Shown: positions 56,953-60,300 of the stretch, piece after piece
How positions within the stretch are numbered: position 1 is the stretch's first letter
Layout of the letters: each line of letters starts with the position of its first letter
Assembly (NCBI GenBank): GCA_034359265.1
Contig: CP136890.1
Span: forward strand, 188,501-252,500
DNA from: Canna indica
Taxonomy: Eukaryota; Streptophyta; Magnoliopsida; Zingiberales; Cannaceae
Direction: 5' to 3'
DNA: 64,000 nucleotides
The notes under the pieces: generated by a model
The model's input: the letters and a program-made list of their open reading frames with translations, nothing else
What the model was told of the DNA's origin: nothing
The model's database searches: none
Position numbers and translations under genes: made by a program

Positions 56953-57397
56953 TCACGCTTTAACAATTCCCAGTAGAACTGTGAAACTTAGTTGTGAGTT
57001 GCTCCTGAGTCTATAGTCTCTTATTTGATCTTCAACAGTTGGTTGAAGGTTTGACTCCCTTCCTGATATTGATGGTCTTGGTGGCACCGTTTCAGTATTT
57101 GTGATTGAGCTCTTGGCATTTCTTTTTCTCTGAGTCAAATATATCCATCGGATTTTTGAACACGTATAATTTGCCAGAGGGTCTTGAGATTTTTGGTTTA
57201 CTAAGTCCTTCGAGACTTAGCTTTTGCAAGTCCTTTTGCAAACTATCGATTGCGGTTGCTAGGTCTTCTGGTTGAGCTATTGCTTTGGCTGTTTCCAATC
57301 TTCGGACTGCAATTTTTAGGTCTTCGAGATCTTCTCTGATCTTTACCGTTAGCTGAATCAAGGTGTTCAGCTGTTTGAACTGTGTTTGAGATAGCTT
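56953..57397 (-). mobile_element. Endogenous pararetrovirus (badnavirus-like) fragment
   Basis: On the minus strand, after the HIR-homologous part ends at GLLQA, the same frame continues for 101 codons to the stop at 57092-57094. The segment has a coiled-coil pattern (QLNTLIQL, REDLEDLK, RRLE, DLQKL), then a Lys/Pro-rich stretch and YVFKNP near its end, the layout of the small nucleic-acid-binding ORF2 protein of badnaviruses. An ATG in another frame (57119) overlaps the stop by 28 bases, and a DQIRDY motif follows at about 57017-57034, as at the start of badnaviral ORF3. A frameshift separates the two. No other viral domain is in the window, so this is a fragment of about 0.4 kb, identified by recollection of the family. 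Confidence 0.65.
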
Positions 57398-60300
57398 CGC
57401 TTGAAGCAATCCATCTCGAATTTGGTCTGCAACGTCACGAACGGCGCCAGGTCCATGAGGTATGAAGACAGCTGAGGATTTGGAGTGTGCGCCGATCTCC
57501 TTCATGGTGTCAAAATATTGTGTGACTAGGACCATATCCATTACATCCTTGGCTGTTGTCCCTGGCACATTGATTGAGAATCCAAGCACACTATCTCTCA
57601 GTCCATCCACAATTGCTTGGCGTTGGCGGGCAATACCAAGACCTGATAAATACTTGGCTTCAGCCTCCCCCTCTGCCCGCTTGATTTGGATGATCTTCTC
57701 AGCCTCAGCCTTTTCATTTGCTGCCACACTTAGCCTTGCAGCTGGGCGGGTGAAACAAACATGGTTTGGAATGACAAAATAAAGGAAACTCAAACTTCTT
57801 TAGTCATGTTGTAGCCTAATGCTTCCTTTTTCTTTAGCTTTAATAATAATATACACACAATTGAAGAGCAACAGAGTACCTGCATTAATTTCATTCATTG
57901 CCCGTTTCACATGAACATCTGGCTCAATGTCAACAATGAGTGTCTGCACAATTTCATAACCATAAGCCGACATAGCCTTCTCCAGTTCCTCCTCTACCGC
58001 TTTCGCAATGTCATTCTTCTGCTCGAAAGCGTCATCCAGGTTGAGCTTTGGAACACTAGCTCTGATTACTGGAAAAGAAAAGAAAAACTGTTGTTGGTTA
58101 AATTGAGACACATATTCAGAGAAGAAATAAGGTATTATGTCTGCAGTGGGAATAATGATTTCAGTCATTATGTACCTCGAAGGATAGTCGGATATACCTG
58201 TTTATGTAGTTCAAATAATCACTGTTTTATTGACCAGTACTGGGAGAAAGAAGCTACAGGAGTTACTGCATTTCATCAAATCAGTACGTTTGCAGCTCTT
58301 AAATAAATCTTGCCATCAAAAACAAGACAAATTTAGATGAAGTTTATAAGATTTTTGGCTAATGCTTGATCTCTACTTGAAACTATCAAGCCCATCTGAA
58401 GTTCATCCTGCGCTCTCTTTTTAATTTTTATGACAATATCCTACTTGGTATAAAGATTGAAATAGGAACAAGGTTTCCTATTACATTTGTCACACAACTA
58501 CAATAATATAGGTTTTCAGCTCCAGTAGCCATAGCCCAAATCACCAACAGACATTTTTAAAAAATTTGGGCACGGCAAAGGACAAAACTTTTCAACGTTC
58601 AAGCATGAAGCTTGAAATTTTGGTGTTTCCATTAATTATCTCATTCATTTCTTCAGTTTGCGATCACATACCTGATAGTCTGATACTATTTGTTTCTCAA
58701 CATTCTTATTTCTGTTTCCAAAGACTAGGAAACCTTGAGTAAAATTATAGAAGTCACAAAGCACCCTTTGAACACCCAAATTATGACCTCAAAAGAAACC
58801 CCAAATCACAAAAGGGAAAAGAAACCCTAGTCTCGTCATTCCACCACAAAAGTACTATCTAAAGAAAACCAACAACCAGATAGAGAGCAAAAGACTAGAG
58901 ATGAGGCAAGAAATTCCTAAAAAAAATCTCTCCACAGGCAAGAGCTGCTGTTCAGTATTTCTTCAACAGTCAAAAAGGGCATTATGCAAATGGTTCCATA
59001 AGTCGTGCTTCCATATCATAACTGGAAGTTTTAGACTTAGTTATATGACTAACATCCTTATGATAAAGAATAAAAGAATGCATAAAAAGAATAAAAAGTC
59101 AATCACAATTATCTCCATATTAGTTTCTGATGCTTAGAGAGTGCAAAAAATGGTGTAAATTTCTTTATACCGTCAAACACATAGGCTTGTATTTGAGATC
59201 TTGTGTTGCTTAGCTTGTAAAATGCATCACTTGCTTTCTCAGCTAGCACACGGTACTGTACAGAAGCGACAACATTCACAAAAACATTATCCTGCATTCA
59301 CAGAAAATAGGTTCATTCCACATTATTGCAGCAGTAACTCTTGGAATATAATTAACTACTAAAGAAATCTTAGTATGATGCTACAAAATACTCTTATTGA
59401 AAAAGAATATATCAATGTTAAACACAAATTGAAAAAGAATATATCAGTGTTATTCACAGAATATATCAATCTTTTAATATATATATGTGTGTGTGTGTGT
59501 TAAGGACAGAAAGCACTCAACAATCTACGCATGAGTGCCAGAAAGCACTCAACTGTTTTGGGTTTAGGCTCATTATCATAATGACAGCTGAATAGAATAA
59601 CTTGTTATCAGAATAAACATCTAAATGTAAGAATAGAAAAAAAAAACCTTCCATGAGTACCACAAACAAGCAATTTATTGATGCACTGATCTAATTTATA
59701 CTATTATAAAATGGCTCTACTCCACAACAATTTCATTTCGAGCTAACCGCAACAGTTGTTCTATCTTGATAAAGACATGAGAGGAGATTTTGATCCACAC
59801 ATCTGAGTCATATACTCATATCTAAGGATCAAGGAAACAAAAATAGATATAAAATATCATGCATAAGCTATGTCATAAATAAATGACATTTTAATTATTT
59901 TATTTATTTAGGCGCCAATGAATGATAAATTAGGTTTCACGGTAGATTTCATCCAGAAAACTCCACCTCAGGTTTCTATAACTGAGTTATTTTGTATATA
60001 CCCTTCTCGTGCAGCAATAACCAATAATAACATGAATAAGATAAACTTAGATGGTTGTTTATTATAAGTTGTTAGTACATTTCCCTCAAGCACCCAAAGA
60101 GAATAATAAAATAATGAATAAGAATGAAGATGGTATCAATTAATAGTCAATCAACATAAAAAGGAATGAGCTTCATTGCCATCTTCATAAAGTTAGGATT
60201 AAGTTGTAAATGATTCTTTAGAAAATAAAATGACATGCACAGCATAGAAGAAACATAAAGATGCGAAGGAGAGAAAACCTTTGTTTTTGTTTCACATTTA

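What the first reader, a model, noticed from the sequence alone, without database searches (positions are those of the whole stretch)
57092..57741. HIR immune scaffold protein fused in frame to a badnavirus ORF2-like tail
Seen: the last exon of the minus-strand HIR gene stays open past the normal end and adds 101 residues (57397-57095) with coiled-coil heptads and a Lys/Pro-rich end containing YVFKNP. All four coding exons join in phase into 382 residues. Family knowledge: HIR proteins end a few residues after GLLQA; badnaviral ORF2 is a small coiled-coil nucleic-acid-binding protein. Inference: an endogenous pararetrovirus fragment supplied a new C-terminus to a plasma-membrane defence scaffold, either a neutral accident or a co-opted chimera.
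Basis: partly seen in the sequence, partly recalled or inferred. Interest (0 to 1): 0.92.

Follow-up and report, generated by a model that had tools for sequence, protein, structure and literature searches.

The report
Immune gene fused to virus fossil
In this plant, a short piece of fossil virus DNA lies exactly at the end of a gene for a membrane defence protein, so the gene now encodes that protein with 93 viral amino acids on its tail; nothing yet shows that the tail is made or useful.

Summary
HIR-B (minus strand, 57092-60467) joins in phase into 382 residues; its in-window paralogue HIR-A ends four residues after GLLQA. The extra 101 residues come from a 398-nt insert, 57398-57001. Similarity to dispersed repeats stops at both ends in 7 of 7 long-flanked copies. 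In copy L006 the tail's relative is the middle ORF between a DUF1319 ORF1 and an ORF3 with a movement-protein domain. ORF2 stop and ORF3 start overlap as ATGA in 51 of the 55 best copies. So the source is an endogenous badnavirus-like element. The tail is P2 residues 39-131 of about 133, plus 8 off-frame residues. Removing the insert gives GLLQATHN-stop.

Function is not shown. The open frame is unremarkable (39 of 55 copies are open too). The tail is not clearly better conserved than the viral remnant beside it (dN 0.05 against 0.07); a fairly young, so far neutral insertion fits best. No RNA, orthologue or read data; the HIR paralogue search did not complete. Host-caulimovirid fusions are known; a P2-HIR fusion was not found.

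The parts
60279..60467 (-). HIR-B exon 1 (MGQALCC...)
59171..59291 (-). HIR-B exon 2
57880..58068 (-). HIR-B exon 3 (length of HIR-A exons 3+4, one intron fewer)
57092..57741 (-). HIR-B exon 4, host part plus in-frame viral tail and stop
57399..57741 (-). host part of exon 4, ends ...GGATTGCTTCAAGC
57001..57398 (-). 398-nt endogenous badnavirus-like insert
   Evidence: similarity to long-flanked dispersed copies stops at both ends; independent composition breaks at 57397 and 56986
57119..57397 (-). tail residues 1-93, in frame with HIR: P2 (ORF2 product) residues 39-131 of about 133
57092..57118 (-). last 8 tail residues (CQELNHKY) and stop, outside the P2 frame; the ORF2 stop / ORF3 start overlap of the copies is absent here
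57001..57108 (-). remnant of the viral ORF3 start (SITNTETVPPRPSISGRESNLQPTVEDQIRDYRLRS), out of the fusion frame and mostly beyond its stop
56988..56990 (-). presumed original HIR-B stop codon (empty site reads GLLQATHN-stop)
49197..51069 (+). HIR-A, paralogue without tail, 285 aa, ends GLLQANTLK

Best explanation
A 398-nt fragment of an endogenous badnavirus-like pararetrovirus (most of ORF2 and the first ~36 codons of ORF3) was joined into the last coding codons of a HIR gene. (1) Shown: the host part ends at 57399, the viral part runs 57398-57001 (each border good to a few nt), and the host resumes at 57000 with what reads as the old stop. (2) Shown: the viral ORF2 reading frame happens to be the HIR frame, so the ORF codes for HIR plus P2 residues 39-131 plus 8 off-frame residues. 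(3) Inferred: the fragment was captured during end joining, with a 3-nt AGC shared between host target and viral right end. (4) Inferred: if HIR-B is transcribed as its exons suggest, the product is a membrane-anchored SPFH/HIR protein with C-terminal helices and a Lys/Pro-rich end. (5) Inferred: the insertion is fairly young and the tail has drifted neutrally so far; its most likely effect is none or a mild change in HIR assembly, with HIR-A still supplying the normal form.
For: Whole-genome search: 149 other places match the tail at E<=1e-3, up to 82% amino-acid identity (only 150 of 865 candidates were scored, so a lower bound). 40 of 40 copies match along residues 1-93; of the top 55, 51 do, the others from residue 3, 7 or 11, or to 92. 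L006 carries ORF1 with DUF1319 (E 5.2e-24), ORF2, and ORF3 with the MP domain (E 1.4e-5) in order. The in-frame stop of ORF2 is the TGA of an ATGA in 51 of 55 copies. Similarity stops at 57398/57393 and 57001/57003 in 7 of 7 copies with 1.5-kb flanks (L007-L009 resemble each other closely). The empty site gives an in-frame HIR end. Terminal-branch dN is 0.05 for the tail and 0.07 for the ORF3 remnant. 39 of 55 copies keep the same stretch open. The host body of HIR-A/HIR-B is constrained (pN 0.089, pS 0.76).
Against: No transcript, read or population data. No external caulimovirid sequence could be compared in full: the protein database was off and viral contigs appears to hold none (exact patterns only). 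DUF1319 was sought and shown in one locus only (L006), whose own ORF2 has no ATG ahead of the match (the same copy as L013). The MP match in L008 is just under its cut-off (21.5 against 23). A piece downstream of L006 where RT might lie held a LINE-type domain instead, so a complete element was not shown. A published SCBV P2 coil segment showed no significant similarity (2780 of 5000 shuffles as good). No close donor copy: the insert sits on its own branch of 0.22 with weak support (0.5). In one search, one of 20 copies (L022) aligned only to 57120.
Confidence: 0.87

Rival explanations
1. Co-opted chimera: the tail is expressed and kept because it is useful, for example by tying P2-like coils or nucleic-acid binding to a membrane defence scaffold, or by acting as a decoy for badnavirus P2.
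For: Intact frame of 101 codons; tail dN/dS about 0.05 on its branch; tail dN nominally below that of the remnant outside the fusion frame (0.05 against 0.07); precedent of a host-caulimovirid MP fusion with phenotypes (AtMP, as told in PMC10377300, heading 4).
Against: A low ratio is what viral evolution alone leaves: copies show 0.058 (terminal) and 0.042 (internal). The ORF3 start also varies more than ORF2 in some copies (L018 0.100 against 0.042; L019 0.065 against 0.021; but L023 and L029 about equal), so 0.07 against 0.05 is no sign of tail constraint. 39 of 55 copies are open too.
Confidence: 0.07
2. The ORF exists but the tail is not made: HIR-B is silent or decaying, or the tail is spliced out, for example from a donor-like ACG|GTAAAG at 57346 to an acceptor-like CACAG at 56979, or small RNAs against the viral DNA silence the gene.
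For: Donor- and acceptor-like motifs exist; endogenous caulimovirids are commonly silenced (recalled).
Against: All HIR-B splice sites and frames are intact and its body is constrained against HIR-A. Motif matches are not evidence of use.
Confidence: 0.3
3. Assembly artefact joining a repeat copy to the HIR gene.
For: The insert belongs to a repeat with at least 149 other matches.
Against: No Ns in the window; no other scored match exceeds 82% amino-acid identity and none of 40 copies exceeds 81.4% nucleotide identity; both junctions are clean and the empty site closes in frame.
Confidence: 0.03
4. Host-derived C-terminal extension or unrelated repeat, not viral.
For: No Pfam match above cut-off for the tail alone (best E 0.064); nothing significant in PDB (best E 0.55) or BFVD (none at E<=0.001).
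Against: ORF1-ORF2-ORF3 order with DUF1319 and MP, and ATGA overlaps. Badnavirus ORF2 shows no known domain anyway (the rows of PMC5649073 Table 1 that I saw list ORF2 as ND).
Confidence: 0.01

Closest known systems
Badnavirus P2 / virion-associated protein (ORF2 product)
   Same: Middle ORF between DUF1319 ORF1 and MP-bearing ORF3; ATGA overlap; about 133 aa in the genomic copies against 121-126 aa in yam badnaviruses (PMC4974523 passages); predicted long helices then a Lys/Pro-rich end.
   Different: In HIR-B the first 38 residues and the ORF2 stop are missing, and it is read as the tail of a host protein.
AtMP: Arabidopsis gene fused to a caulimovirid movement protein (PMC10377300, heading 4)
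   Same: Host gene fused to an endogenous caulimovirid gene.
   Different: Viral part is MP, with reported phenotypes; here P2, with no expression or phenotype data.
Caulimovirid/host co-transcripts and the R1a insertion of eggplant (PMC8346255)
   Same: Badnaviral or other caulimovirid DNA within host genes, defence genes included; Table 1 has an SPFH-domain/RT co-transcript in Taiwania cryptomerioides.
   Different: Viral parts in Table 1 are MP, AP, RT, RH and CP, never P2; R1 was disrupted, here the host frame is extended intact.
Plant HIR proteins (e.g. OsHIR1, PMC3022912, passages)
   Same: Band_7/SPFH domain (E 6.4e-28); starts MGQ, where a myristoylation site is predicted in HIR proteins.
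   Different: 382 residues instead of 285 in HIR-A; 101-residue tail.

Membership tests
Badnavirus ORF2 (P2/VAP) origin of the tail | Located between a DUF1319 ORF1 and the ORF3 polyprotein with MP | tested here: met
   In copy L006. DUF1319 'restricted to badnaviruses' is from PMC4514669 (passage). ORFs of 3 of the 7 loci with flanks were scanned (L006, L007, L008); ORF1 in L006 only.
Badnavirus ORF2 (P2/VAP) origin of the tail | ORF2 stop and ORF3 start overlap (ATGA, or TAATG; PMC4974523) | tested here: met
   51 of the 55 best-scoring genomic copies (misses L053, L060, L063, L064); not kept in the HIR-B copy itself.
Badnavirus ORF2 (P2/VAP) origin of the tail | Coiled coil followed by a basic/proline-rich C-terminus | tested here: inconclusive
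   AF2 helices 4-40 and 43-60, low-confidence stretch 61-82, mean pLDDT 66.6, one sequence. No significant match to the published SCBV P2 coil segment.
Badnavirus ORF2 (P2/VAP) origin of the tail | KQNN motif (PMC4974523) | tested here: inconclusive
   The family has FKQLN at tail residues 7-11; the paper gives KQNN or KQYN and places it in the C-terminal region.
Badnavirus ORF2 (P2/VAP) origin of the tail | Nucleic-acid binding | not testable with these tools
   -
Genus Badnavirus (donor element) | ORF3 with aspartic protease, RT and RNase H | tested here: inconclusive
   One piece downstream of L006 gave zf-RVT, a LINE-type domain, not a caulimovirid RT; no other copy tried.
HIR (SPFH) protein | Band_7 domain and N-terminal MGQ | tested here: met
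HIR (SPFH) protein | Plasma-membrane location and role in cell death | not testable with these tools
Domesticated endogenous viral gene | Purifying selection on the viral part after insertion | tested here: inconclusive
   dN tail 0.05 against 0.07 for the adjacent viral remnant outside the fusion frame; small numbers.
Domesticated endogenous viral gene | Expression, and conservation in related species | not testable with these tools
   No RNA data; one search says that the own genome has no relatives held here.

The most novel reading that the evidence does not exclude
The fusion protein is made: a HIR oligomer at the plasma membrane displays a crown of badnaviral P2 coils, which bind incoming P2 or virions of related viruses (a virus-derived decoy built into an immune scaffold), or change HIR assembly and cell-death signalling.
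Probability: 0.06. Interest if true: 0.92.

Novelty: new member of a known kind. Interest (0 to 1): 0.52.

Why it matters
Evidence that plants have reused caulimovirid genes is scarce (PMC10377300, heading 4). The published search for fused transcripts (PMC8346255, passages) screened annotated transcripts for viral and host conserved domains. Badnavirus ORF2 showed none (PMC5649073 Table 1, rows seen), so P2 fusions could be missed as a class. This locus is a clean, closely bounded case with its own controls: a tail-less paralogue 6 kb away, a viral remnant outside the fusion frame in the same insert, and at least 149 matching places elsewhere in the genome. It can be tested directly by RNA and PCR.

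Tried and rejected
Homology outside the genome: Pfam, PDB, phages, viral contigs, GTDB contigs and BFVD gave nothing usable for the tail. Viral contigs seems to hold no caulimovirids: the VEDQIRDYR pattern gave 0, the RNase H primer pattern 0, and the Badna-FP pattern 1 contig whose large ORFs, by eye, are not caulimovirid, read as a chance match. These negatives are therefore not evidence against a viral origin. SCBV P2 coil segment: not significant. Similarity between HIR-A and HIR-B 3' regions: none beyond chance. The composition break alone was not taken as proof until the genomic copies confirmed it. Selection on the tail was considered and not claimed. AF2 of exon 4 was too poor to use (mean pLDDT 47.8).

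Samples and dropped rows: the alignments, trees and distances use 20 copies (of the top 22, two C8 near-duplicates left out). One search used 40; these had passed over 15 of the top 55, several with more stops, and gave 31 of 40 open. So I fetched the 15 and recounted all 55: 39 of 55 open. The other 94 of 149 matches were not fetched. In one search, L014 and L022 were dropped because no open ORF3 start was read. The ATGA count (39 of 40) was string presence only; one search tests the in-frame stop.

Papers: PMC10377300 outline and section 17 (heading 4); PMC8346255 outline, section 11 and passages; PMC10885806, PMC4974523, PMC5649073, PMC4514669, PMC8050207, PMC4411674, PMC5902531, PMC13308828, PMC12624060 and PMC3022912 passages only; all others search listings only. 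That no P2-HIR fusion is in print rests on the listings of searches (in 90, the 10 of 111 papers listed; none held the HIR term) and on Table 1 of PMC8346255.

Full report
What was claimed. A minus-strand HIR gene runs on past its normal end into 101 residues that resemble badnavirus ORF2.

The gene. HIR-B has four coding exons (60467-60279, 59291-59171, 58068-57880, 57741-57092) with GT/AG introns that join in phase into 382 codons and a stop. The protein starts MGQALCC and has a Band_7/SPFH domain (E 6.4e-28). A paralogue, HIR-A, lies on the other strand at 49197-51069: five exons, 285 residues, 239 of 281 positions identical, ending GLLQANTLK. The alignment of the two stops exactly at GLLQA. 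Their bodies are under strong constraint (pN 0.089, pS 0.76, synonymous changes saturated). So HIR-B is an intact-looking gene with an abnormal end.

The tail is foreign DNA. The stretch is open over 303 nt in only 66 of 20000 dinucleotide shuffles. An unsupervised three-segment composition fit put breaks at 57397 and 56986; the tail is 41% A on the coding strand against 28% in the host part of the exon. Another frame overlapping the tail's end and running on reads ...TVEDQIRDYRLRS..., which suggested (from recall) the start of a viral polyprotein.

What it is. External searches were uninformative, and the large protein database was switched off. The plant's own genome (752.9 Mb, 9 contigs; the window is C1:188501-252500) answered once. 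The tail has 149 further matches at E<=1e-3, the best at 82% amino-acid identity, with open frames from 74 to 298 codons and often near 138 (150 of 865 candidates scored, so a lower bound). In copy L006 the tail's relative is ORF2 (129 codons open), preceded by a 141-codon ORF1 with DUF1319 (E 5.2e-24) and followed by an ORF3 with the viral movement-protein domain (E 1.4e-5, above its cut-off). PMC4514669 states that DUF1319 is restricted to badnaviruses (passage). The in-frame ORF2 stop is the TGA of an ATGA, overlapping the ORF3 start, in 51 of the 55 best copies (by eye in 20 of 20), the arrangement described for badnaviruses in PMC4974523 (passage). In 16 of the first 20 copies the first ATG of the open frame lies 38 residues before the match, and in 16 of 20 the stop falls at residue 95-96, so the native protein has about 133 residues. 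The HIR-B tail is P2 residues 39-131, followed by 8 residues outside the P2 frame. In the rest of the insert the ORF3 start survives as 36 readable codons outside the fusion frame.

Borders. In 7 of 7 copies with 1.5-kb flanks, similarity to the window begins at 57398 or 57393 and ends at 57001 or 57003. The 20 shorter pieces agree on the left (57391-57398) and, in 19 of 20, on the right (57001-57008), but they were cut close to the right border. Joining the two host flanks (57399 and 57000) gives ...RDGLLQATHN-stop, 284 residues, a normal-looking HIR end in frame. Host target and viral right end share AGC, which would fit end joining; this step is inferred.

Is the tail kept by selection? Three checks say it cannot be claimed. 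First, the same stretch is open in 39 of the 55 best copies. Second, the tail's branch has dN 0.05 and dS near 1 (saturated), ratio 0.05; copies have 0.058 on terminal and 0.042 on internal branches, so a low ratio is what viral evolution alone leaves. Third, the ORF3 remnant, outside the fusion frame since insertion, shows dN 0.07 on the same branch (18 copies, 36 codons). That is nominally more than the tail, but some viral copies differ in the same direction (L018 0.100 against 0.042, L019 0.065 against 0.021; L023 and L029 about equal). Both figures are upper limits for neutral change since insertion, about 0.05-0.07 per site; at a recalled rate of 6-7e-9 per site and year that is at most about 10 million years. 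The insert falls inside the family but beside no close donor (branch 0.22, parent support 0.5).

How it would work. If HIR-B is transcribed, translation runs on into P2 where HIR-A stops. The tail alone is predicted as two helices (4-40, 43-60), a low-confidence Lys/Pro-rich stretch and a last helix (mean pLDDT 66.6). Badnaviral P2 coils self-associate and P2 binds nucleic acids (PMC10885806, passages). A HIR oligomer could therefore carry extra coils at its C-termini, helping or hindering assembly. This is inference; the likeliest present state is a neutral or nearly neutral extension, with HIR-A still giving the ordinary form.

Known or new. PMC10377300 (heading 4) names the AtMP fusion and the eggplant R1 insertion as the main hints of caulimovirid reuse in plants. 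PMC8346255 (section 11) lists fused transcripts; the viral parts are MP, AP, RT, RH and CP, and one host part is an SPFH domain (with RT, Taiwania). No P2 fusion and no HIR case appeared in the listings of searches. So the kind is known; the pairing and the viral gene are new as far as searched.

Limits. No RNA, reads, orthologues or other accessions. The search for further HIR paralogues did not complete (20 attempts). An external P2 comparison was not possible beyond a 28-residue SCBV segment, which was not significantly similar. DUF1319 was sought and seen in one copy only, whose ORF2 has no ATG ahead of the match, and a caulimovirid RT was not found at the one downstream place tried.

Noticed in passing
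57880-58068 against 50229-50515: HIR-B lacks the third intron of HIR-A (189 nt against 92+97 nt); one gene lost or gained an intron.
   Followed up: no
50516: HIR-A's fourth intron appears to use a GC-AG donor (GCAAGT).
   Followed up: no
55777-56116: Near-perfect direct repeat, spacing 167-168 nt (99-100%), in the flank of a VDAC-like (porin) gene next to HIR-B (gene named by eye).
   Followed up: no
own genome, C8:43.6-47.9 Mb: Group of closely similar copies of the badnavirus-like ORF2 region (L014-L017, L020, L024 in the tree), suggesting recent spread or duplication; 865 first-look candidates genome-wide.
   Followed up: partly
57346 and 56979: Donor-like ACG|GTAAAG within the tail and acceptor-like CACAG just past the insert could splice out most of the tail.
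   Followed up: no
2156-6297; 61715-63998; 37583-40736: Open frames that look like Ty1/copia, Ty3 and LINE elements (read by eye).
   Followed up: no
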